Position numbers and translations under genes: made by a program
Assembly: GCA_036872755.1 (NCBI GenBank)
Contig: JAVHNS010000004.1
Span: 496,001 to 560,000 of the forward strand
Origin: Orbilia blumenaviensis
Taxonomy: Eukaryota; Ascomycota; Orbiliomycetes; Orbiliales; Orbiliaceae
DNA length: 64,000 nucleotides
Direction of reading: 5' to 3'
Notes under the pieces: generated by a model
What the model was told of the DNA's origin: nothing
Databases searched by the model: none
What the model saw: only the letters and a program-made list of their open reading frames with translations
Part shown: piece by piece, positions 4,506-20,841 of the stretch
Layout of the letters: every line of letters begins with the position of its first letter
Numbering within the stretch: position 1 is the stretch's first letter

Positions 4506-6248
4506 CTAATTATAATAGTTTGCTTCGTGAGACTGGTCTGAGTCCGAAATAACAAAAGTGTCATCGTCGGTGATAGATTCACCGTTTAGACCAGATCCGG
4601 GTGGAGATACCATGGTAAAATGGTTTGAGGGGTGAAGGACGGCATTTTCTCCGACAGCCCTTTGCGGGGCAGTTAAAAACCCGCTTAAAGGACTCGCTGA
4701 CTTTCCAACCTGGCCAGCGGGATACTCAGAGAGGGCAGACTGATTCAAGCTATTCCCTGAAGTTGCTTGCCCAAAAGATTTCCTTGTCAGACCTGTTGGA
4801 CCGTGGAAAGTGCTTCCAAGATGTACCCCCTGACCTGACGAGCGCTCGGGAGGAGCCAATTGGGTAAGGGTGTTCTCCGCTGGGTCAGACGAGTTTAGAG
4901 CGTTCAGATTGCCACCCTGCGAAGGGGATCCATTAGAAATGCCAGTGCTTTGGGGAAGCTCCCGAGATGGATCCAAGAGAGTGGCTCCCGGACCCGTCCC
5001 AACAGAATCAGAACTTTGGCTTGAACTAAAGGCATTGGATGACTGAACGTGTCTACCAGAGGTATCAACGCTTGGAAGCACTTGGCCAGGTTGTTTAACA
5101 CGGCGGAAAGGATGGCCGAATGCATCCGCAGGCTGGGAGTAAGGAACTCGCGCTCCAAAGCTTTTCGTGCTTTGAATAGGCTGGAGTACAGACATCCCAG
5201 TGTCCTCAGGCAAAGAGGGCTCAATAGCCAAGGGAGAATCTTTAGGTATTGGGCCAAACAGTTGGAGAGCACGTTTGACGTCTTCGCTTGCCGAAGCAGC
5301 CAGGCTTGGAGGCGCGGGTGGGAAATCGAACCTTTGCAACGGATATATTGGAGTTGTCCGAGATGACTGCCCTGTCTCCACCAAGCTAATGGTTGGAGTC
5401 GATGAAGTGATCTCATGTTCAACTGGGAGGGCGCTGTGAGTGATTTGTTTGGGCGTAGGGGTCGCAGGAGTGATGGGAGTCACAGGAGTGGTGGGGGTGA
5501 CGGGGGTGGTGGGAGTGGCAGGAATAGCTTCTACGGCCACGACCTCGGGAATGTCTCGCAGAAGGCCCTCTCTCCTCTCATCCCCCCTTTCAAAAAAAAT
5601 ATCTTTTCCATTGTCTCGTTTTCTTTCTTTCTCATTCTCTTCCCTAACTTCTGCATGAATGTGACGCCCACCTTCTAATCGTCCGATGTTTGGCTCCCTC
5701 CGGCCCTCCATTTCCACTTCTCTCGATTTTTGCGTTCTCTTGGGAAGCTTATTTGTTACTTCCGCGATTTCGAAAACCTTTTCGATGAACTTCTCGTCTT
5801 CCTATTACAGTTTCCACTAGTTTAGTAACCCCCTAATCAAGAATGGTAAGAATTCCAATACCAAACACTTACTAGAATGCATTCGATTAACATAGTAGTA
5901 GCCACATCATTCGCATTATATCTGGTTACCTGGCCCCGAGCTAGTAGTTCTTTTGCGACAATCTCAGGCCAGGTCGAGACCTCTGGTAGAGTCGGAGGGA
6001 GAAGAACCAATGCAGCGATGCCCTAACAGTTGTTTCAGAATATGTAAGTACTTAAACGACCAGTCAATTGAATATTTAAATATTTGGACGGAAAGTTCCA
6101 GAATATTGTTCCAACTTACATCAGAGGTGAGCTTGTGACGGAATAGTGCATTAGCATAGTTTGGGCGATGAATGATCTGACTAGATCTCCAAGGGATAAT
6201 CTGTTTCCAGTATTGCGATGGTTTGTTTGAGTTTCCGCCAGTGCTCAT
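4506..6248 (-). CDS. orphan protein, conserved-exon family, member 1
   Basis: I reconstruct three exons on the minus strand: 6248-6120 (43 codons), 6022-5873 (50 codons) and 5801-4506 (431 codons plus stop), 524 aa in total. Both introns are phase 0, with GTAAGT donors and TAG acceptors. I do not recognise a known domain. Residues 1-93 look folded (aromatic PSQYWKQIIPWRSS, then WPEIVAKELLARG in exon 2). After a charged helix-like segment (EDEKFIEKVFEIAEV) comes a long low-complexity tail rich in Ser, Pro, Gly and Thr, including a (T-P-x-T-P)n run coded at about 5450-5520. No signal peptide or membrane segment is present. Exon 2 matches exon 2 of the genes at 6723-7954 and 12885-14848 in length, phase and residue pattern. 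Function unknown; the tail suggests a scaffold or regulator. Confidence 0.72.
5445..5525. repeat. Thr-Pro coding minisatellite
   Basis: Within the long exon of the orphan gene, GGAGT/GGGGT-type units on the plus strand repeat in steps of 9-15 bp. On the minus strand they encode alternating TP, VTP and ITP units. It is a slippage-prone coding tract and probably varies in copy number between isolates. Confidence 0.7.
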
Positions 6249-6394
6249 TGTTGCGATTTCGTTTATAGCCGTGTGCGGCCGCATGAAAATCGGTAGTATG
6301 CTCAGGGTAGCTTCACCGTTGGGATTCAGAGATGAAGGAAGAAGGGATGAAGAATAGATGAAGAGGAAAGAGAAGAGTTCTGGTTTAGTCCCTA

Positions 6395-6402
6395 TATTTA
6401 TA
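6395..6402 (-). promoter_or_regulatory. TATA-like box of orphan gene 1
   Basis: On the minus strand the sequence reads TATAAATA, about 147 bp upstream of the proposed ATG at 6248. It is the only strong TATA-like element near this start and supports choosing the 6248 start over the upstream in-frame ATG codons at 6449 and near 6285, which would lie on or beside the box. Confidence 0.45.
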
Positions 6403-6722
6403 GTAGAGCTGATAGAAGGTAGCGTCACTTCGACTCGATGCTTCTTCAAGGCGGTATATTAGTGTATACATGAGCGCTAGAGCTGGCTTAAGAGTTGTAT
6501 TGATGTTGAAGTCGGCTGTGGGTTTGGATAGATGTTACAAAATCCAACACTAATTACCTGTATGACGACGATATTCTAGGGTGAAGACCCTGTAGTGAGC
6601 AAGCCTACATAGTACTTAAGTACTTTGCTTGAGTACAAGATTCAAAACCAGATCGATCCTACTCCTCCACTTTATTCAGTCTCGTAATTGCTATTCCCTA
6701 TTCTTCAACACTGAAACGTATC

Positions 6723-7954
6723 CTAGTCGAGCTTCAGTCTCACATAAGTCAGGTCTGCCGTTTTTCCGTGTGCATATGCTGAAGTCAAGAGCGTGGCGAT
6801 GTAATCTTTGTCGCACTGTAAACCCTCAAGAGCTTCCTTCAGCTCCCACAAGCTGGTATGCTTTTTGGTGCTTTCTTTCTCGAGGTTGTCCCCGCCATCT
6901 TTATGATTCAATAGGCCTTCTAGCTTGTTCTCGTTCTTTCTTCCGATATTTTTATAATCTCCTTGTCTTGGGGTCCTATGGCCAGACTTTTCCGGAGAAG
7001 AAAAGGATAAATAGGAGGAAGACGATGGATCTACCTCGAGGATCGTAGAAGGGCGCCTTGTTGTCATATTAGTATTCCCTGCTAAAACATACTCCAAGTT
7101 CAAGACATCGAAATCGATGAGCTCGCACGGCTTCGGGGGCTCCGGTAATGGCTTATTCGTTAAGCTTGGAGAGTCGTCATTTAGTGATGATCCCGATAGC
7201 AACATCGCATCAGAGGACCTTGAGCTTAGGGCCGAAAAGCTCAGCCGCGACGCTGGTGGTGACCCTACCGGGGTGTGAGACCCAGATTCAACCAGTCTAC
7301 TGCCGAAGTTTTGGATATTAGGTGGGGCCTAAAGTTATCGTTGTTAAAACCAAACTCCGATTTCCAGCTTCCGGAAACGAGCCAAACTGTATAGGAATTT
7401 GACAAAACTTACCAATTTGATCTAACCATGATGCCCATACACGATTGATATGGCATTTTATGTCAGCCGTATCTCCATTCACGCTAGTGGTGTAGTGTGG
7501 TGTGGTATATTTTACATCGGGAACCCGTTGTATGCCATCATTATAACAGCGAGCTAGGTTTGCAGCCAGACTACGACCTGAATTGGACTGTTGATTATTC
7601 GGAATATACAGAAAACATGCAACAGAAATTTAGTCCAACTACTAATATTAGATGATATACTCGGGTACCTACGTACGTTCCAGTTGGTATTATCGAGCAT
7701 CGATATAGCTTTGCTATTCGCAAGCAACGGATCGATCCCGGTTCGCATTAACTCGAACGCGAGAACTGCAACTATGCGCATCTTATCTGGTCCATCAGAT
7801 TGTACAATTCTGGCAACTTGCTAAAAGGAAGTATTAGTATTTCGATGAGTTTATGTGTAGAAAAGTTGCCCTTGTAACGGCGATTTTATCAAACTTCTGG
7901 GGCTATGGGAACTTTAGGATCCAGCATAGTTGTTTGGGCTACTGTATTAGCCAT
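6723..7954 (-). CDS. orphan protein, conserved-exon family, member 2
   Basis: Minus strand. Proposed exons are 7954-7895 (20 codons, start uncertain), 7820-7677 (48 codons), 7587 to 7441 or 7413, and 7328-6723 (201 codons plus stop), giving about 318 aa. The second exon (VLAFELMRTGIDPLLANS region) aligns with the second exons of the genes at 4506-6248 and 12885-14848. The third encodes a Cys/Trp-containing stretch (KCHINRVWASWLDQI). The last is Ser/Pro-rich with a proline cluster (NKPLPEPPKP) and a helical end. One junction is unresolved: the best donor (GTAAGT, 7412-7407) leaves phase 1, but the natural acceptor (TTTAG, 7330-7329) needs phase 0. The weaker donor GTATGG (7440-7435) or the later acceptor TAG near 7268 would fit; otherwise the gene is frameshifted. 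The first donor (GTTTGA) is also weak. Function unknown. Confidence 0.55.
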
Positions 7955-9293
7955 ATCTTTGCGCTATATCGGAAGGTTCATAATCCGTTAGCATATACAC
8001 TAGTACCATAATTCGTATGAAATCACGTCAAGTAGGATAGATAATCAAATTGTTCAAACTGGCAAGTAGGGTTCGCCATCAGTACTTTCATCGCTATATT
8101 AATAAGTCGAGGTTTTGAATTATAAGCGGTTAACACCGGAGACCGTCTTTCAGCTTATCTAACGTCGCGACGGGTACGGCCAGTGACCTTGGCGCTGAGG
8201 CTGTTAGTTTTCGTGGAATTAATAATTAATCATCAAGTTGGAATATGAAATATTTTTTAAAGATATGGTCATAAGTTCATATACCTAGTTATGGTTGAGA
8301 TACCGATATAAATACTAAATTTAAGGAGCTACCTGGCCTGGGAAATCTATATATGAGAGGATAAACCGTATTTTTAAGGCATCCACTAGAATGGTCTGAT
8401 ATAAAGCCGCCTTATATTTTAGATTAGCGAGCTCCAGGCCTATAGGTTTGAAGCGCGAGCTACCCGAGGCTAAGGTCTATTAAATCGATTGGATCGGTTT
8501 GATTTATACTACCATATCATACGAGGTCACAATCAGTTATGTGCACATGTGTTACACAGAAAAATTCACGAAGTATCCTGGGGCATTTTATAATTTTGCA
8601 AGGCAACTAAGCTACCGATATGCCACTGCACTGTGTTGCATTTTACCCAAGACTAGCACCGATTCCCGTCATTGCATTGCATCGGTCGATACACTAACAA
8701 AACCTATATTGCGACATACATTTACAGGCAACTAGGGTTACTAGCAAGGATGAGTCACGCTAGAAACATCAGATTAAAGATTACACTGTCCGAGACCAGA
8801 CCACACTGTATATTTCAAACTTCGGCTATCAGCTAAAACTAACTAGCAATGCCTATACTACCGACAAGTGGCAAGTCGATCCGGCAGATGGAAGCCAAAC
8901 GAATTTTGAACCTTTCTTTTAGCCTGCAGCTTCGCGCGCATATAAACGAAACGCTAACTCCGGGAAGTTACTAGCGCGCCATAAAGCTTAAATTTGGTCA
9001 TCCAATTTCTACGATATTAGGGTAGTGATAGAAAGGGCCAGGAATCAGAGCCTTTTTTTCTTCTCGTTTTGCCGAGGACCCCTCTTTATAGACATGTCGA
9101 CAGTTTTTATGTTTCGTTAAGTTAAATGTATTTTTCTCTTTGATTGTAATACGCAAAAAAAATCTATATTGTCATTCCTAGGATACGAAACGCCTGGCTA
9201 ACCTAATTTACATTGTCTTCCATGTTTGTTTCCTCCAAAGCATCGGCCAAATGAGTTACTAATTCGAACGCCGTGATTCCGTATTGCCAGCAC
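7955..9293. other. AT-rich gene-free stretch
   Basis: No supported gene between the first exon of orphan gene 2 and the 3' end of the secreted protein gene. Frames are short and broken on both strands. Composition is AT-rich, with runs such as TATATGAG and several TTTAAA-like stretches. The last 200 bp probably contain the 3' untranslated region of the minus-strand secreted protein gene. Confidence 0.5.
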
Positions 9294-9812
9294 TTAAACT
9301 GGGTTCCTGTTGGCGTAGATGGTCATCGACTTGGGGGCATCCAAGTAGTTAAAGTTTCCGTTGGGGTTGACACCATTCTTCTTGGTCTTGATCTTATTAC
9401 GAAGAGAAACCCCGCCAGAGACAGCTGTCGATCCAAATGTCTGGCTAAGAGACAAGAAGAAGCTATTGGATTTGGCATCATATGCGAAACCAAACCCGGT
9501 CCTCTGTCCACCTTTTGCGACTTTACACTCGGTTATCCATTTAGGGGAAGCAACGGTGCTCTTTGTACCGGCGGTACCAGCACCAATGGGGTGGGTGGCA
9601 GTGCACTTGGCAGCATAATTGTATGGGTTGGTCTTAACGTCGAAGGAGATGGTGACTTGATTGGAGTGTGGGGAGCCCGAGTTAGAGAAGTTGGTGATGG
9701 AGAAAGTAGGGGATTCTACGCTCCGGCCTGGACCTGATGGCGTGCTATTCGGGGCAGCCTGGACAGCAGCGGCCATACCAAGGACTGGGAGAATGAAAGA
9801 AGCGAAATGCAT
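9294..9812 (-). CDS. small secreted AA1-like protein (effector candidate)
   Basis: Single exon, 172 aa. A clear signal peptide (MHFASFILPVLGMAAAVQAA, cleavage near residue 20) is followed by a compact domain of about 150 residues. The pattern NF-x-N-S-G-x-PHSNQVTISFDV, one Cys in AAKCTATHP, a Trp-x-x-x-Cys (WITEC) and an FGFAYDAKSNSFFLSLSQTF-like strand resembles the fungal AA1-like (Alt a 1-like beta-barrel) family. The two mature cysteines could form one disulfide. Proteins of this type are secreted; many are cell-wall associated or expressed in planta, but the function here is unknown. It lies alone, with about 1.3 kb and 3 kb of gene-free DNA on either side, and a TATA box is present about 190 bp upstream. 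The family assignment comes from pattern recognition, not a search. Confidence 0.75.
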   Translation of the reverse strand: MHFASFILPVLGMAAAVQAAPNSTPSGPGRSVESPTFSITNFSNSGSPHSNQVTISFDVKTNPYNYAAKCTATHPIGAGTAGTKSTVASPKWITECKVAKGGQRTGFGFAYDAKSNSFFLSLSQTFGSTAVSGGVSLRNKIKTKKNGVNPNGNFNYLDAPKSMTIYANRNPV

Positions 9813-9999
9813 TTTGACGGTTTAAGATTTTTAGATTGAAGATATATCTAAAGTTAAAGATTGAAAGGATTTTTGAGAGGTTTAACGAGTGGACTCCGAA
9901 AAGAGTTTAACAGAAGCGAATTGGATCTTAGGACCGCCAGGTATGGGTGCTGTGGAAAGGATAGGGAAGAGGGAGGCGAGAGGAGCGGGAATTTGGCCG

Positions 10000-10007
10000 T
10001 TTATATA
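10000..10007 (-). promoter_or_regulatory. TATA box of the secreted AA1-like gene
   Basis: Minus-strand TATATAAA, 188-195 bp upstream of the ATG at 9812. The intervening sequence is free of in-frame starts for this gene, so a 5' leader of about 150 nt is plausible. Confidence 0.5.
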
Positions 10008-10264
10008 CATCTTCTTCACGGGAATATCGCATGCCTTCCGCGAGTTTAACGTTATAATGGCATGTCCCTATACGGGTATAGACTACACAAAGGTTGCGTT
10101 TTTCTTAGATCCACCGCTGTGTTCTTCGTTGAGGCTGGTTTACGAGACCAGATCCACTCTTGTCTCGGAAACCAACCACTTGGACTGCCATGGTGGTTAG
10201 GATCAAGTTCTCGCTAACGCTCGCGGAGGGGTTATACTAGTCATTTAAAGTCTCAAAGTTAACT

Positions 10265-10304
10265 TCGAGTCGAGTCGAGGCGGCTGATGGCTGATGGCTG
10301 ATGG
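10265..10304. repeat. adjacent CGAGT and GGCTGAT short tandem repeats
   Basis: Three units of CGAGT/CGAGG (10265-10279) are followed directly by three perfect 7-bp units of ggctgat (10282-10302). GTCGA-type runs recur at about 26247-26262 and 47234-47250, so this pentamer is a scattered simple repeat in this genome. Confidence 0.8.
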
Positions 10305-12535
10305 CAATAAAGTACCGTGGTATGCACGTTCGTACACACGTATACGACGATGCCTGTGGGAATGGCATGGAATACTCACTTTTATGGAATGTCAGGGCGA
10401 TCTCCCAACCAATTAGAATCGGATTTCCGACGGATGGAATGGAGAAGACGGTCCATCTACAGGCTGGCAAGGCCGAATATCTAGAGTCGAGACGAATTTG
10501 CGAAGCGAATAGCACCTGTATGTTTGTGGGCCAACGGGCGCCCTATAGACCAGATCTAGATATTCGAGACTATATCGACTCATGTATGCTATGCATGATA
10601 ACAAACGCTCATTATTACTCGACCCTGAATTGGGTCCCTGTATTTTTCTAGCGTAACGTTATATTTTAAAGTTTCAAATATTATGTGTAATATAGGTCCC
10701 CGAGCCGCTTATGACAAGTTAAGGCGGATACCGCCGTCGAGGCCGGCTATCCCAAACGGGCAATGTGCCGGATCGGGCGGATTCTTTGGTCTCAGTTTCG
10801 GTTGGTCTAGCATAAATGGAACCTGCCGGCCAGCCTTTGAACTAGCTAACCGACGAAACAAGAAGGCTTATATGCCGCGTGCCAGGACATTTCTAGAATT
10901 TTTGGTCGAATGTGGGCGTCTGAGTTCATGAAACGTTTGAGTATCCTACGGCTTTGATGCCATGAGACGCTGTGGAATACTCTTCTCGTCAACAATCTAA
11001 GACGAAAACCCACATATGCATACCAGCAAAAAAGCACATGAAAATTTGTAGCGTTTTGTGCCATTCTCACTCATCGACTTACAAAAGACTCGAGCATCAG
11101 GATCGAATTAAAATTACCGTGGATCTAATATTCGCAGTTGCGCTACCTCCAAATATTTTGAAAGCCTTTCCAGCTGGCCACCATAACGCCACCCCCGTCT
11201 TTGCGTTGAGGCCAGAGTTCCTATGCATAGTAGACCAGTGCCATCGCTCCGGAGCTCTCAAGCGGACAAAACTATCTTTGAAAACTTTATTCCCAAAAAG
11301 TAAAACACGCCGTAGTGCTAAACGACCTGGGAACTGTGGACCCCTGAATTCATAGACTATTGGTCTGTTTTAGAGCTATATGGTAACGAATCTAACGTTT
11401 TCATTACCGACTTGCTAATAAAGCACAAGTTGTTCATGTATGACTATGAAAGAGTCTAATTGTTTGCTTATATGAAGCAATGCTACCATGGCACGATTAT
11501 AATGCCATCACACAGTGCTGCGTTTAAGGCGTTGAGTTTGGTACTTCAGTCCGATAGTCGTGACGCCCGAAGTCTTGCGTAAATGCGCATCGCCCAACTT
11601 CAAAATCCCATATGAAGGTTAAATCTAGCCCCACACCTTGGGTCGAGCCGAAAATTACATTCGAAACCCCTGTCTCCGTGGCGTGCAACGATACTTAGGA
11701 TAGTTAGAATTCTAAGAGAAATAGCAAGCTCTGATTTAGCATAATGCATGAGGCTTGCTTGGCTTTCACTGCATCTGCGGAGCAATTTAACAACACACCC
11801 GCACCAACAAGTACTAGTGTTCCAACTTTCTTCTAACTTCCCTGTTTGTGAGGCGTCAGGTGGCGGTCGACATCTCAATGCAAATAATTCTAGCCGTTCT
11901 ATAACCCTTGCTAGCGAGAAAAGAAATATGTCGAAAAGGGACTCCGCTCTAAATCGAATGTTCTGTCGGAACAATGCTACCCTTAATAGACGGGAATTAT
12001 ACATTCCCGATATGCAATATTAATATTAACACCGTAAGGCTTAATAATTCCGAAGGATTATAAGTGGGACACTGCTTTGTCAACCATGGATCAATGGGTT
12101 CGGCAGAAACTTGGACATTCCATGTTCAGAGTACATGCCAAGATACGTGACGACCAGTCCTCAGAAATAGCTTCAGAAGTTCGGCTCTTGAATCCATGTG
12201 TAGATACTTACAAAACGAAGCCTTTACTGGGCGATTTGGGCTGCTCGTTCTTTATGTATAATTATTATATCAGTTATTATGGCAGTTGGGTAGTATTTGT
12301 GTCGCGGGACACCATATCCTCCTTTTTTACTTGACATTTTGAACAGGGAACTTGAACCTTAAGGGACCTTGATATGGTATGGGTGTGTTGAGAGTGTGGT
12401 ATTATGTACTGCCTAATTAGAGCCCCCCCATTTATTACTATCTTGAGCTAGCGAATATTCTGCTTTTAGGCATCGGATTTCCTAGATTAGAAAGGAGCGT
12501 ACCAACTAGCACACATTTGAAAACATCATGCAAAA

Positions 12536-12568
12536 GTAAATTCTACGAAGTAAATTCTACGAAGTAAA
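12536..12568. repeat. 14-bp tandem repeat
   Basis: Two perfect copies of gtaaattctacgaa followed by a partial third (gtaaa). It lies in gene-free DNA and looks like a simple tandem duplication. Confidence 0.85.
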
Positions 12569-12884
12569 GCAGATAATCTGAGAAAATAATGACTTGAGAA
12601 TTTCTAGGAGGATTTCTACTATACATGCTCAGACAATAAGAGTCAAACAGGTAACGAATGAGAATGAGTAGAAGGTTAGAGGGGTGTTAATATTAAGACT
12701 CTCTGAGGTTAGGAAAATAGTCTGGCATGCATGTAAAACTGTCTAGACAGACAAGCAGAAAGACAGAAAATAGGAGAAAGGCCTATGCAGAAAAAGAATC
12801 GAAAATGCGGTAGTCATAAAGGATAAATAGCGTAGCTCAGGGCATTCACTATGCAAAGCAACAATGTGAGAAGGTTGCTTCGTA

Positions 12885-14848
12885 TTAATTTGGTCGGCGG
12901 GGAGGGCTTTCTCCGAACTTAATGGTAGCAGACCCGTGGCGTGAGATTTTGATCTCGCCCCGTTGCCTAGAGACTGTTGGAGCCCATCTGTTGAGGAAGT
13001 CGACCACAACTGGGGCAGCTGTAGAAAGGCAAATGACGTCAGTATTGGACGTAGGCTAGGTTTAACGAGATTTATGGGTTTGAAACTTACGCGCAGTAAT
13101 ATTAGCCGAGGCAGAGGTTATTCCGGAAGCCACGGAACGATTTTCTGGGTATGAATATCCTGTACCGCTGTTGCCGACCGGGTTCCCATAGTGACCGTGA
13201 TAGCGATGATGATGATAATGTTCAGGCCGAAGAAATTGACGTTCTTCCCCATAGGTGTTACGGTTTATATCGCCATCGGTACGAGGAAGAATTGGCCCTG
13301 ACTCTGGATTCGCGGCACCAGACGACTGGGGAAGATAGGGGACAGCCTGACCAGAGAACCCGATAGGGATGCTTCGACTCACCCCGCTCAAGCTCTCTAG
13401 CTCTGTTTTATCTCCTTCATCATTATTATGATAATTCCCTTCACTCTCCTCTACGTGTTCTTCAAGTCCCTGATGTTCCTCATTTTCTTCATTCCCGGCG
13501 CCGTCAATAACATCCTCTTCTTCTTCTCCATTTCCATCCTCGCCGCCACCACCAGATTCATCATCATGACCGTAGCCATAATCATCATATTCGTCGTCGT
13601 GGCCATACTCATCATCATGATCGTTGTTGTCGTCGTGATAATTACCTCCATGGTAACCCTCTTCGTTCCAATGGGCATCATTGTAAAAGTCATCCTCGGT
13701 ATCATAAACGCTAGTGCGATCTATATCCGAAGGGTTGATCAAAGTTCGGCCCGGAGAATTTAGAATCTCACCACGAACAGCGACAAAGTTGGCTCTTTTG
13801 ACCATTGAATTACTCATGAAAAACTTCCGGTCGTAAATTTCCCAGCTCTCCTATGAATGGCAGCCATGATATTAGCATGTGAACCAAATACAATTAGTAC
13901 CGGAGTGAGGATACTTACTCCTGGCCTGAGGTTTAATAGACGGTTGTTGTACACGGACTATATGATTAAATTCTAATGTCAACAACAATGAATTAACAAG
14001 TACAAAGAATAAACATCCCATCTTACCCGATGGAATCGACCAAGAAGCGAGGAAACCAAGTTACTAGCTCGTCCATAATCCCGATCACCCTCGCAAACGA
14101 AGTGATGGAGGATAGCATCTTTCCATTGGTTATAACTCTCAGAAGGGTTGTGAAAGATGGCACAGATGATATAAAAGACATCCTAGTAGAAATATGAGGT
14201 CAGATCTTGATAATCTCAAGGTATTATGGGCAAATATACTCTACGAACACTTAAAGTAAACTTTGGCATTCGAGCGCCCACGTGGAGCTCGTGCTCCAGG
14301 AACTTGCAGATACATGCGGGGGGCTTGCGAGGATCACCTGGGCGGAGAGAACAGGTGCACAAGCGGGAAGCGCCTCCAGCACGTCGGGCCAGAGCTGCCC
14401 TGGCGGCTTGCATGGCTTGGAATTGGGCGTGGGCACTTCGAGCCTGGCTGTTAGACCCAGGCAACTGCTGGCGTCCTTGGCCTCTTACCGGCCCTCTTCT
14501 TCTAGCTACGAGAGTGGCTCCTCTCTCGTTAGCAGGCAAGGCAGGCTGTCGCGCAAGAGGAGCGCGCCGGTTGCTGCGAGGTGGGGCGGGTCCTCGTCCT
14601 TGTCGCTGAAGGACTAGTTGGTTCGAGGGGGCGGTCTGTCTGGGAGCAGCTCTTCTAGCTCTCCCAGTTCGTGGCTGAGGGTTGGGGGGGTTATTTGCTC
14701 GAGGACGCGTCTGGCGTGCTCGTAGAGCTCGTGGAGGGGGGGGAGGTGGAGGGGTGATGTCGTCGGCGATGGGGAATACTCGCTGGGGAAGGTCAACTTC
14801 CCCAGCTTGTACCCCCAACACCAAAACGACGACGAAATAGTTTGACAT
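12885..14848 (-). CDS. orphan protein, conserved-exon family, member 3 (Arg/Pro-rich and acidic)
   Basis: Five exons on the minus strand: 14848-14240, 14182-14027, 13957-13919, 13850-13091 and 13018-12885, giving 565 aa with consistent phases (0,0,0,1). Donors are GTATAT, GTAAGA, GTAAGT and GTAAGT. The final exon frame was fixed by phase: it gives APVVVDFLNRWAPTVSRQRG and ends at TAA 12885, whereas the other frame runs on without protein character. Exon 1 is unusually GC-rich and encodes a strongly basic Arg/Pro/Ala tail plus a Cys cluster (LCTCSLRPGDPRKPPACICK). Exon 2 (52 codons) aligns with exon 2 of the genes at 4506-6248 and 6723-7954. Exon 4 encodes a strongly acidic Asp/Glu/Gly/His run. 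No signal peptide is obvious, although residues 5-13 are hydrophobic. Function unknown; the split charge could suit nucleic-acid or condensate binding. Confidence 0.7.
13390..13700. repeat. acidic low-complexity coding tract
   Basis: Trinucleotide-like TCA/TCG/TTC runs on the plus strand encode a Glu/Asp/Gly/His/Tyr-rich run on the minus strand in exon 4 of orphan gene 3. The opposite strand gives a hydrophobic Ile/Val-rich open frame that is an artefact of this composition. Confidence 0.8.
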
Positions 14849-15237: not shown

Positions 15238-15319
15238 CACGTGCTCTCGAACCGCGTTCCAAACCAGGAATAAAACTCGGATCACGTGATGTACAGATCA
15301 CGTTAGGTCAGATCACGTG
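15238..15319. promoter_or_regulatory. cluster of CACGTG E-boxes
   Basis: Three perfect palindromic CACGTG hexamers, at 15238-15243, 15283-15288 and 15314-15319, plus a one-mismatch CACGTT at 15299-15304, all within 82 bp. Three of the four sit in the context ATCACGT. CACGTG is the core site of bHLH and bHLH-zipper regulators. The cluster lies about 700-800 bp before the NTE1 start and about 400 bp before the start of orphan gene 3, so either or both could respond. Confidence 0.65.
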
Positions 15320-15690
15320 AGTATCAATTCACATGGAAGTTTTAACCGATTTAGTCGCTTGGCTCCGGCTCGGCTAAAACTGTAGTGATCGGCGGGTTGA
15401 TGCACAAGCCCAACGCACCAACTGTCATTGGCTGGCCACTTCACTGTCTATCACAAGCTTAAGCTTCTCGCGGTCCACCGTCCGTTGTCTGGTCCACCAT
15501 AAAAAGCCCCTCCACTATCGTCCACCTTTGCCATTACCCTTTTGCAGCGCTTGGAGGGTGGACTTTGCGACAAAACAGAAAAGTCACCGCATCGACATCA
15601 TCTTTTCCCTTTTTTACAGACCCCCGTAGACTCAACCACCAGAAGACGCATCTCACAAGTCAACTTGAGAGCGTTAGCCGTTAACGAGAC

Positions 15691-15780: not shown

Positions 15781-16031
15781 ACTCCACTCGCAATCGATCG
15801 TTCCGAAGAAAAACACCCCCGGACTTCTCCTCAGGATCTTCTATATCAGCTGAAATCGCCAAAGCATATCTGTAAACTGGTGTTTCCAAATAGCAGGGTC
15901 GGAACCTGCTTGCTTACCGCTAGCCGACTGAAACTCTAAAGAATCGCTCAAACTCTAGAGAACTCTCGATCTCCCGCCATTCATACAGTATATCTAGACG
16001 CCTCCCCCCCTCCTCGAGGTCCGCTTTCAAA

Positions 16032-19000
16032 ATGGCCTCAGCTTCGCCTTCTGTCGTTTCGCACGGCACTTTTAACGCCTCTTCCAACCTACCGGCCGCC
16101 ATGACTACCGCGCCGCCAACTCAAAACCTTAGTTTCATTGGAAACCTAATATATTACGGCCTTTGGATGGTCCAGCTTTTACCATGGATCACATACTGGA
16201 TTCTTAGCTTTACAACCTATACGGTACCTGCCGTACTATTTACGCTCTTTAGCACTAGCTTTTCTATCACTATGAACTTCACCACTCTGTAAGTTTGTCA
16301 CAAGGCCTATTCCTTTGGGTTTACGGATCGAGCTAACAGTTTGTTTAGACTTGCCATTGCGCTCATGTTCGCAACGTTAATATCATATTTCGTACGCTAT
16401 CGTTACCTGAATATGTACGCTCATCTGCCGCCTGAGCCTCAAAGAAAGGAACCACAGATAGACCTGTTCACTGATGGACCGGAAGCCGACGACACAAAAC
16501 CGGGAATTGCGAGCTACCTCGACGAGTTCTTGAGTGCTATAAAGGTTTTTGGATATTTGGAGAGGCCTATATTCCATGAGTTGACCAGACACATGCAAAC
16601 GAGGAAACTGATTGCTGGTGAGACTCTGTTGCTCGAAGAGGAGAAGGGATTTTGCGTAGTTGTCGATGGGCTGGTGCAGGTCTTTGTCAAATCTACCGCT
16701 ACTGGAAATGCTGTTTCTGGCGATGATGATGAAGACTTGGCCGGCGGACAAGGCTATCAATTGTTAACCGAAGTCAAGAATGGGGCTCCAATGAGCAGTC
16801 TGTTCACCATTTTAAGCTTGTTCACTGAAGATGTGCAACTACGGCACGATGACGATGATGACAGTAGCACTGCCCCAACACCACCCCAAACCCAAGATAG
16901 CTTCTCTTCTGTTGGCAGTGACCTGAGAAGAGGTCCGAGGGACTACCAACAGGGTGTAGGCCCTGCAATGCAGGAGCACCCATTCTCACAAAACGGAATG
17001 GCCAGACAGTAGGTCTTTCAACCCTCTTAAACCAGATACGATTATAAGCGTTTCTAACCAACCTACCAGAACGTCAGAAGGGGTGACGCTACCGAAGGTG
17101 CCTACCTTCCCTATGCTAGCTGATGATTTATCGGAATCGCCTTCAACCTTCACTCCAAGCTCCCGACCAACAACTCCAGCTCCAAGTAGATCATCGCATG
17201 GAAGGCCCGTTCGGCCAAAACTGTACAAGTCGAAATCTGTCCACCCCGATATTATTGCCCGTGCGACAGTTGATACGACGATAGCAGTTATCCCAGCAGC
17301 CGCATTCAAGCGTCTCACAAGAAGTTATCCCAAAGCATCGGCCCACATTGTATCCGTTATCTTAACGAGATTCCTTCGTGTGACGTTTGCGACTGCAAGG
17401 AGCTACCTTGGGCTTACCGGTGAGGTTTTACGCGCAGAGAAGAGCATGAATAATTATACTTCATACGACCTCCCGAATCATCTTCGGGGTTCCGCCTTAG
17501 ATAGACTGAAGGAAAAATTCGCAAACGAAAAGTCCGCAGCAAAAGACGACGAAGAACTGAAACGTGGTATGGTGCTACACAGTACTTCGTCAGCTACTAG
17601 AAGGAGAAGACGGTCCACATTTTCAATCCAAACCAGGATTGATGTTGCATCGCGGGCTGCGAATATGCGTGGTATGGACAGCCCTTGGGTAACAAATACT
17701 CACCCAGGGGACCTATTCAGCAACGTACCCCTTCACAGACCGCGAAGTAATTCGAGCGGCCACTTCTCACCTCAGTTAGAAGCACCGTTCGGCAGAGGGT
17801 TCACCGTTTCAGTTCCATCGAAGATAGATAGTACACTCAACAGTCTTGGACAGGCGGTCCCTAATTCTCAGGATTCGTCGTCCCCGACCTTATCGATGGT
17901 GAACAGCAGAACGTCACAGATGGACGTAGTTCCCGAGGAAGAAGATGAGGGAACATTTAGAGAGGCTGTTCTCGAATGTATGTTCAAGGCCATCGGACTT
18001 TCGAGCACGAAGGTCGAGGCATTAAAGCGGCCTGGTGGTTCGGTTGAGGCTAGTCCTCGTCTTGTATCATATGATGCTAGAAGACAGAAGGCGGTTTTCA
18101 ATTCATTCGGACATATCGATCCGTTTGAAGATGCAGAGACTGAATCAGTCGCCTCAACTGCCATCTCGACTAACAGCATGCTTGGCCCGAGTGCCCCTAC
18201 ACTCGAAAATATCAAAGACGATGTGGATATCGTTTTCTTCCCAAAGGGAAGCGTGTTGGTCGAAGAAGGTGAACGAAGCCCTGGGTTGTATTATGTCATC
18301 GACGGCTTTTTAGATATTACAATGGCCGTCGAAGACGAAAAGAAGGCCGGTGTTCTGGGCAATAATTCGTTCAGAAAGGGTAGCACGGTCAATTTGAATT
18401 CCGCACTGCCAGCTCTAAGCCGAACAAACACAAGCAGCTCGATAAAGACTAATCCGTCAACTCCAGCACCAAAGAAACCCACCAGGAGATCGCTCTTTAT
18501 GGTGAAGCCTGGCGGTGTTGCAGGGTATATTGGCTGCATCTCTGGGAGCAGAAGTTTTGTTGAGATCCGGGCGAAGACAGATGTCTACGTCGGATTTCTA
18601 CCACGAAGCAGCTTTGAGAGGATCATGGACAAGAACCCTGTCGTCTTACTTACTATGGCGAAGAGAATTACAAGTCTGTTGCCAAGGTTAATGTTGCATA
18701 TCGATTTCGCTCTGGAATGGCTGCAAATTGATGCCGGGCAAGTCATTTACCGAGAGGGCGATGAAAGGTGAGAGCACCGTATCCAGCCTTCCCTGGACTG
18801 ATCAGACATACTAATCGGCTTTAGCGATGCGATATATATCATCTTGAATGGCCGTCTCAGAGCCATCAGAGGTAACCCAGATGACGGCGATATTCATGTC
18901 GTTGGTGAATATGGTCAAGGGGAGTCTGTTGGCGAGCTTGAAGTTTTGACTGAGTCTACCCGACCTGTCACCCTACACGCAATAAGAGACACGGAAGTGG

Positions 19001-20841
19001 CCAGGTTCCCAAAAACATTGTTCAATAGCCTTGCACTTGAGCACCCTGGAATCACAATTCAAATCTCTAAGATAATTGCGACAAGGATGCGGTCTCTAGT
19101 CGAGCAACCACTCGACAGGAAAGACAATGCCGCTATCGGAACGACCAAAACAGCGAACAAGATGAACCTGAGAACCGTTTGCATTCTACCCGTTGCAACA
19201 GGTGTTCCTGTGACAGAGTTTAGCAACCGTTTATCAACCGCCCTACAACAGATTGGTGTTCCTAACGGGGCTGTGACACTTAATCAGGCCGCCATTCTCA
19301 AGCATCTAGGGCGACATGCTTTTAGCAGGATCGGGCGGTTAAAGCTTAGCCAGTTCCTAGCAGATCAAGAAGAGAAGTACGGTATGGTGTTATATGTTGC
19401 TGATACCAGCGTTAACGCTCGATGGACTCAGACTTGCATAACGCAGGCTGATTGTATCTTGCTTGTGGCGTTGGCGGAAGGCAACCCTGGCATTGGTGAC
19501 TACGAAAGATATTTGGTTGGTATGAAAACAACAGCGAGAAAGGAACTAGTGCTGTTACATCCTGATCGATTTGTGAAGCCTGGTTTGACTAGGCAATGGT
19601 TGAAGGTGAGCTCCTCCTCCTTCTTTACTCCAGATTTAACTCATGCTAATTTTATCCGATAGACCCGTATATGGATTAATGGTGGACATCACCATGTTCA
19701 AATGGCAGTCAACTTGACCAGTGTTCCCGAGCCTGTCCATCAACGGAAGCAATTCGGTTCCGCTATCAGAAAACGGGTTAAAATTCTTCACGATGAGATT
19801 TCGATTTATATATCGAAGCGGACAAGACAAACGGTTTACCCCTCAGAAGCGCCCTTTAAGGGCGACTTCCACCGCCTGGCCCGGAGGCTTTGTGGTAAGA
19901 GCGTTGGGTTGGTTTTAGGAGGCGGTGGTGCTCGCGGTATTGCCCATGTTGGTGTTATCAGAGCCCTCGAGGAAGAAGGTATCCCAATCGATCTCGTAGG
20001 TGGAACTAGTATCGGCAGCTTTGTTGGAGCTCTATACGCCCGAGACGCGGATATTGTCCCGGTGTACGGTTGGGTAAAGAAGTTCTCAGGTCGTATGGCC
20101 AGCTTGTGGCGACTGGTGTTGGATTTGACATATCCAGCCGTCAGTTATACCACTGGTCATGAATTCAATCGGGGTATATTCAAGACATTTGGGGATTCCC
20201 AGATTGAAGACTTTTGGCTGGAGTTCTACTGCAATACTACTGATATAAGTAGGAGTAGAATGGAGATCCATACGAGTGGATATGCATGGCGATATGTTCG
20301 AGCGTCCATGAGCTTGGCAGGTCTGTTACCGCCACTGTGTGATGAAGGTATCATGCTGCTCGACGGTGGATACGTTGACAATTTGACGGTGTCACACATG
20401 AAGAGCCTGGGTGCGGATACGATATTCGCCATTGATGTGGGTAGTATCGATGATAATACGCCACAAAATTATGGTGATACCCTCAGTGGCGGGTGGACGC
20501 TGTTTAACCGCTGGAATCCGTTCAGCTATACACCTAACCCACCTACATTGGCGGAAATCCAGGCGAGGCTAGCGTATGTGAGTAGTGTTGATGCGTTGGA
20601 GAGGGCGAAGCAGGCGCCTGGGTGCTACTACATGCGGCCACCGATTGATCCGTATGGAACACTTGATTTTGGAAAGTTCGACGAGATATATAATGTTGGA
20701 TATGTTTACGGCAAGAGATTCTTGAGGGAGCTGAGGGAGGTCAAAGGAGGGTTGAGGGTTTGGGGTGGTGATAATGGTGGGGAAGGGGTTGCTGGGAAGG
20801 GAATTAGATGGAGAAGAACGGGTAGAAGAGCTAGCATATAG
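16032..20841 (+). CDS. NTE1: lysophospholipase NTE1 (patatin-like, neuropathy target esterase homologue)
   Basis: Five exons by phase-consistent splicing: 16032-16288, 16349-17008, 17070-18767, 18825-19605 and 19663-20841, encoding 1,524 aa, the usual length of fungal NTE1. Hydrophobic helices occupy residues about 38-80 and 87-104, followed by the family segment [20 protein letters not shown]. Three cyclic-nucleotide-binding-like domains follow (near residues 165-240 and 690-830, and from about 870). The patatin domain has the glycine-rich oxyanion loop [12 protein letters not shown], the nucleophile motif GTSIG near residue 1245 and the DGG of the Ser-Asp dyad (LLDGGYVDN) near 1365. The enzyme sits on the ER membrane and deacylates phosphatidylcholine to glycerophosphocholine, controlling phospholipid turnover. 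Serine-rich linkers separate the domains. The upstream CACGTG cluster may regulate it. Confidence 0.96.

What the first reader, a model, noticed from the sequence alone, without database searches (positions are those of the whole stretch)
4506..14848. Three neighbouring orphan genes share a phase-0 exon with fixed geometry: candidate undescribed family
Seen directly: genes at 4506-6248, 6723-7954 and 12885-14848, all on the minus strand, each carry a second exon of 50, 48 and 52 codons bounded by phase-0 introns. In each, a glycine (WPEIVAKELLARG; VLAFELMRTG; WKDAILHHFVCEG) is exactly 20 codons before the exon end, and an Ala about 7 residues later precedes an ML or LL pair. Upstream of the Gly is a hydrophobic/aromatic helix-like pattern, and in two of the three a Trp about 12 residues before it. 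Flanking parts are unrelated low-complexity sequence (TP repeats, Ser/Pro, Arg/Pro plus acidic). Inference: a tandemly expanded small helical module on fast-diverging disordered partners. I know of no named domain with this layout.
Basis: partly seen in the sequence, partly recalled or inferred. Interest (0 to 1): 0.75.

Follow-up and report, generated by a model that had tools for sequence, protein, structure and literature searches.

The report
Lineage-specific fungal genes, unproven family
Three neighbouring genes of a fungus each have a second exon of similar size and layout, but relatives of two of them show that these are different genes and only one of the three pairs looks even possibly related, so this is mostly ordinary fast-evolving fungal gene content.

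Summary
The exons are real; the three-gene family is not shown. Exon 2 of A (6022-5873), B (7820-7677) and C (14182-14027) has 50, 48 and 52 codons, phase 0 at both ends, with a Gly 20 codons before the end. One search found B relatives in Arthrobotrys megalospora, A. musiformis and Orbilia javanica and a C relative in A. megalospora. They support both exon-2 borders of B and C and add a 13-codon exon to C. Searches found no second copy of B or C in the genome at E<0.1. One search with the start of A found no relative. Free-register tests show little mutual similarity (held-out ranks 16, 346, unlisted; hhalign P 0.13-0.55). With the register fixed by the introns, A-C stands out: 0 of 1588 exon-like segments score as high, though 219 of 1,119,234 random segment pairs do. 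B joins weakly at best. In a model of a B relative, exon 2 gives three helices of a four-helix domain that runs into exon 3; the Gly follows a helix end. Best reading: lineage-restricted genes; A-C possibly old duplicates.

The parts
6120..6248 (-). gene A exon 1 (43 codons)
   Evidence: open frame from ATG to GTAAGT donor
5873..6022 (-). gene A exon 2 (50 codons, phase 0/0)
   Evidence: splice signals only; no relative found
4506..5801 (-). gene A exon 3, disordered Ser/Thr/Pro-rich tail
   Evidence: 431-codon open frame with the best coding score of three frames
7895..7954 (-). gene B exon 1 (20 codons), GTTTGA donor
   Evidence: aligns with relatives P0002-P0004
7677..7820 (-). gene B exon 2 (48 codons, phase 0/0): helices 1-3 of the modelled domain
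   Evidence: 28 of 48 and 32 of 48 identical to P0002 and P0003; model of P0003
7516..7587 (-). gene B exon 3 (24 codons): helix 4 of the modelled domain
   Evidence: SNSGRSLAANL block shared by 4 of 4 sequences
6723..7328 (-). gene B exon 4: linker with KPLPE[LP]P, conserved C-terminus
   Evidence: alignment with P0002-P0004
14249..14848 (-). gene C exon 1 (start uncertain), ends with a CxC...CxC block, GTTCGT donor
   Evidence: 14252-14362 matches P0001 residues 15-51 at 62%; the part upstream has no counterpart in P0001
14027..14182 (-). gene C exon 2 (52 codons, phase 0/0)
   Evidence: 36 of 52 identical to P0001
   Evidence: fills the gap against P0001, phase 0 on both sides
13091..13850 (-). 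gene C large acidic, His-rich exon
   Evidence: matches P0001
12885..13018 (-). gene C last exon
   Evidence: matches P0001 residues 297-352

Best explanation
These are three separate lineage-restricted protein genes of an orbiliaceous (nematode-trapping-type) fungus; the placing rests on the nearest relatives. B and C are different genes, each with its own relatives, and not shown to share a module. The common exon layout is largely what short helical segments give: a helix, a Gly just after its end, a short turn, another helix. Whether A and C are old duplicates that kept their intron positions is unresolved. Most likely working of B (inference): a cytosolic adaptor with an N-terminal four-helix domain coded by the end of exon 1, exon 2 and exon 3, a long disordered linker with a KxxPxxP motif in 4 of 4 sequences (its reading as an SH3 ligand is recalled) and TP-x-GSPP-type sites, and a conserved C-terminal stretch. 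C joins a CxC...CxC block, the exon-2 region and an acidic, His-rich tail, which suggests metal or polyelectrolyte binding (weak inference). Shown: gene models of B and C, relatives, the modelled helices of B. Not shown: any function.
For: Relatives of B (3) and of C (1) found by one search whose guanine deaminase control also found fungi; gene models agree with them. B-C similarity is nil in free register. The Ala mark is not kept in two of the B relatives. In the model Gly47 lies two residues after helix 29-45.
Against: Register-fixed tests: A-C 1 and 2 of 60,000 in one direction and none in the other, 0 of 1588; B-C column shuffle p 0.0004 and A-B 0.009-0.010; three-way left and right blocks p 0.0007-0.002. 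All three have or have had [LIF]-x-x-[DE] just before exon 2 and V or I at its second codon. The B model is one relative with five rows, mean pLDDT 48.6; C is not interpretable; A was not modelled.
Confidence: 0.6

Rival explanations
1. A and C are ancient tandem duplicates that share a small undescribed helical region and its intron positions; B is unrelated.
Against: Columns were chosen after seeing the exons; 219 of 1,119,234 random exon-like pairs score as high as A-C; with flanking residues p rises to 0.11-0.19; hhalign P 0.31 and 0.42, aligning other columns; no relative of A found.
Confidence: 0.28
2. All three genes carry one undescribed module.
For: Three-way scores p 0.002-0.02 and 0.0007-0.002 with fixed register; equal phases and lengths within four codons; B-C column shuffle p 0.0004.
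Against: Held-out ranks 16, 346 and unlisted; B-C 26 and 12 of 1588 segments score as high; B-C p 0.03-0.08 among hydropathy-matched segments; the B domain needs exon 3; three-way score falls from 48 to 33-46 in the five combinations that use relatives.
Confidence: 0.1
3. The N-terminal domain of B is an ENTH domain, as the UniRef name of P0002 says.
For: That name; an all-helical N-terminal domain.
Against: No Pfam-A family at E<=10 for B or P0002-P0004; no ENTH protein among the listed PDB sequence matches; four helices in about 70 residues is short for an ENTH domain (recalled).
Confidence: 0.1

Closest known systems
Hypothetical proteins TWF281_006540 (P0004, Arthrobotrys megalospora), TWF481_009052 (P0002, A. 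musiformis), TWF718_005693 (P0003, Orbilia javanica)
   Same: Relatives of gene B over its whole length: helical N-terminus, KPLPELP linker motif, conserved C-terminus
   Different: P0004 lacks the second half of exon 2 as annotated; the Ala after the Gly is Val in P0002 and P0003
Hypothetical protein TWF281_006543 (P0001, Arthrobotrys megalospora)
   Same: Relative of gene C: CxC...CxC block, exon 2, 13-codon exon, acidic and His-rich tail, C-terminus
ENTH domain proteins (name given to P0002 by UniRef)
   Same: All-helical N-terminal domain followed by a disordered linker with short motifs
   Different: No sequence-profile match found and fewer modelled helices

Membership tests
   borders of B and C supported by relatives, those of A by splice signals only
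   held-out ranks 16 of 4027 (E 14), 346 of 4134, not listed; hhalign P 0.13-0.55
   A-C strong, A-B and B-C weak, columns chosen after the fact
   kept in C and P0001, Val in B relatives P0002 and P0003, stretch missing in P0004
   B relative modelled, C model poor, A not modelled
ENTH domain family | Match to a Pfam ENTH-type model | tested here: not met
   no Pfam-A family at E<=10 for B or P0002, P0003, P0004
ENTH domain family | ENTH fold | tested here: inconclusive
   four helices modelled; Foldseek and VIA list no ENTH chain
Orbiliaceae lineage-restricted genes without known domain | Relatives only in that family, no Pfam domain above cut-off | tested here: inconclusive
   for B and C the four non-control hits are Arthrobotrys or Orbilia by name and no Pfam family passes its cut-off; for A no relative at all; one search each, of limited reach

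The most novel reading that the evidence does not exclude
Genes A and C, and less likely B, descend from one old tandem duplication and keep an undescribed small helical region coded by a phase-0 exon, with introns placed at the cap of its first helix and after its last, while the rest of each protein has diverged beyond recognition.
Probability: 0.35. Interest if true: 0.35.

Novelty: new member of a known kind. Interest (0 to 1): 0.2.

Why it matters
It shows how short helical exons of orphan genes can look like a family by eye, and that a few relatives settle gene models that splice signals alone cannot. If A and C are duplicates, intron position would be a better marker of their kinship than sequence, which is testable for fast-evolving fungal genes.

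Tried and rejected
A fourth copy: a profile of A and C hit L006:1716-1841 (E 2e-4; 0.009 with the three-exon profile). The alignment covers columns 12-38 only and lacks the Ala-Leu end. The script stopped before its surroundings were printed and I did not follow it further; I treat it as chance, untested.

Exon-like nulls: the first had 4 segments, too few; repeated with looser splice signals (102 segments) and with any [CT]AG...GT (1588 segments).

Coding score of exon 2: A 1.2, B 2.8, C 0.0 bits, between 659 intergenic stop-free segments (mean -4.4) and 478 coding windows (mean 6.1). The stated frame is the best of three in each, but this is not decisive. In one search the coordinates of B exons 3 and 4 were wrong and those two rows are not used.

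PDB sequence matches: none with the three-exon profile A2; P0003 one at E 1.7; the B-family profile four at E 0.17-5.7; P0001 three, the best acetylglutamate kinase 4usj at E 0.0011, over residues 281-353 and partly through a His tag, rejected.

Below-cut-off family matches: A to RPN11_C at E 0.055; P0001 to five Pfam and three NCBIfam models, best E 0.069 and 0.024.

Papers: listings of four searches and passages of PMC3828140. Those four listings show no paper named for these genes; no paper was read in full.
Full report
What is there. On the minus strand lie gene A (6248-4506), gene B (7954-6723) and gene C (about 14848-12885). Splice signals and open frames give each a second exon of 50, 48 and 52 codons with phase-0 introns on both sides. 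The Gly with exactly 20 codons after it is there in all three. The window belongs to an assembly of 42,458,278 bases in 23 contigs.

What relatives show. One protein search with A (residues 1-125 scored; candidates limited to 0.55-1.75 times its length) scored 302 candidates, none at E<=10. A search with the three-exon alignment had 2 candidates, none at E<=10; so short a query cannot reach full-length proteins. The last search used one joined query: the start of B, exon 2 and following residues of C, and a piece of guanine deaminase as control. It returned 71 proteins among 456 candidates. The first four, P0001-P0004, have no Pfam domain; the other 67 rows all list PF01979, as guanine deaminase does, and I did not inspect them singly. 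P0002 (A. musiformis), P0003 (O. javanica) and P0004 (A. megalospora, TWF281_006540) are relatives of B; P0001 (A. megalospora, TWF281_006543) is one of C. The control shows that the collection holds fungi. A has no relative there that this kind of search could see. I looked up only A. megalospora in the taxonomy: Orbiliaceae.

Gene models. The relatives support exon 1 of B with its GTTTGA donor, the exon 2/3 junction (N|SNSG) and an exon 3 that ends at 7516. Identity over exon 2 is 28 of 48 and 32 of 48 for B (P0002, P0003) and 36 of 52 for C (P0001); P0004 lacks the second half of exon 2 as annotated and was left out of that count. In the genome, P0001 matched only gene C (5 matches) and P0003 gene B (3 matches) plus one place on another contig at E 0.675. 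Queries with exon 2 of A, B and C and with the large exons of each found only themselves, and the consensus-like query found A and C only. These searches rest on a first look that only close copies pass.

Mutual similarity, free register. Smith-Waterman against shuffles: A-B p 0.08, A-C 0.03, B-C 0.98. Against coding segments: 0.03-0.07, 0.08-0.11, 0.98-1.0. Held-out profile tests on 5,436 stop-free segments of 264 kb: A ranks 16 of 4027 reported (E 14), B 346 of 4134, C is not among 3877. hhalign of the B family (4 sequences), the C family (2) and A: P 0.13-0.55 in six runs. With flanking residues p is 0.11-0.96. Relatives in place of window sequences: A-P0001 p 0.005, A-P0002 and A-P0003 0.20, the six B-C pairs 0.75-0.99; family-averaged ungapped scores A-B 0.14, A-C 0.006, B-C 0.99. 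The three-way score falls from 48 to 33-46 in the five combinations that use a relative, p 0.0075-0.15.

Mutual similarity, register fixed by the introns. Because the claim is about exon geometry, I also scored fixed columns counted from the two exon ends. Left block (-5 to +8): pairwise p 0.0035-0.008 with families, 0.005-0.08 with window sequences alone. Right block (last 34 codons): A-C 0.00025 (window) and 0 of 4000 (families), A-B 0.05-0.13, B-C 0.07-0.09. Three-way: left 0.0007-0.0013, right 0.0013-0.002, both 0.0008-0.001. On 60,000 segments from each of two pools: A to C 1 and 2 hits, C to A none; A-B p 0.002-0.004 (0.005-0.010 hydropathy-matched); B-C 0.002-0.005 (0.03-0.08 hydropathy-matched); column shuffles A-B 0.009-0.010, A-C 0 of 5000, B-C 0.0004. 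No segment came close enough to the A-C hydropathy correlation of 0.66 to give that pair a matched control. Against 1588 [CT]AG...GT phase-0 segments of the neighbourhood, scored without the upstream residues, the numbers reaching the observed score (each partner in turn) are: A-C 0 and 0, A-P0001 0 and 1, A-B 43 and 36, A-P0003 8 and 4, A-P0002 139 and 135, B-C 26 and 12, P0003-P0001 31 and 21, P0002-P0001 22 and 18. Yet 219 of 1,119,234 random pairs of such segments score as high as A-C. The columns were chosen after seeing the exons. So A-C is a candidate for old duplication, short of proof; B joins weakly at best.

Structure. AlphaFold on the B relative P0003, with four further rows, gives a helical N-terminal domain (helices 18-27, 29-45, 50-63, 69-84; ten-residue means of pLDDT 70-91 from residue 11 to 80), a disordered middle and weaker C-terminal helices; the mean is 48.6. 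Exon 2 corresponds to residues 20-67, three of the four helices. The Gly is residue 47, two after the end of helix 29-45, and is followed by Ile-Asp-Pro and the next helix. A Gly at the end of a helix is common (general knowledge), so its place needs no common ancestry. The model of P0001 has mean pLDDT 41.7 and ten-residue means of 37-54 over exon 2; it cannot be compared. A was not modelled, both jobs being used.

What they are. No Pfam-A family above cut-off for the parts of A, B and C that were scanned or for the four relatives, and no NCBIfam family above cut-off for the four relatives. The UniRef name 'ENTH domain-containing' of P0002 is not backed by Pfam. [quoted passage not shown] Genes like these are therefore ordinary there.

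Most likely working. B: a cytosolic adaptor (inferred from the helical domain, the linker with KPLPE[LP]P in 4 of 4 sequences and the conserved C-terminus). C: metal or polyelectrolyte binding (weak inference from CxC...CxC, acidic and His-rich parts). A: unknown beyond a Ser/Thr/Pro-rich tail; that it shares a helical N-terminus is a guess. None of these functions is shown.

Verdict. Observation partly confirmed; a three-member module family not supported by the tests that could be run; A-C duplication possible.

Noticed in passing
window 9294-9821 (-): Single open frame of 175 codons with a signal-peptide-like start (MHFASFILPVLGMAAAVQA), no Pfam match at E<=0.001; it lies between B and C.
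   Followed up: partly
window 15280-15321: Tandem 15-base unit (2.7 copies) holding CACGTG, between gene C and the divergent NTE1-type phospholipase gene.
   Followed up: no
window 7894-7821 and 14248-14183 (-): First introns of B and C start GTT (GTTTGA, GTTCGT) rather than GTA or GTG; both are supported by the relatives' reading.
   Followed up: partly
window 6723-7328 (-): B and its three relatives keep KPLPE[LP]P and a C-terminal block LW[EQ]LKE...DLTYVRL[KR]L, more conserved than the linker around them.
   Followed up: partly
window 15924-20841 (+): NTE1-type phospholipase gene next to C: Patatin and NTE_Ploop domains in its 19663-20841 open frame.
   Followed up: partly
L006:1716-1841 (+): Partial match to the A-C profile (E 2e-4), covering columns 12-38 only; taken as chance.
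   Followed up: partly
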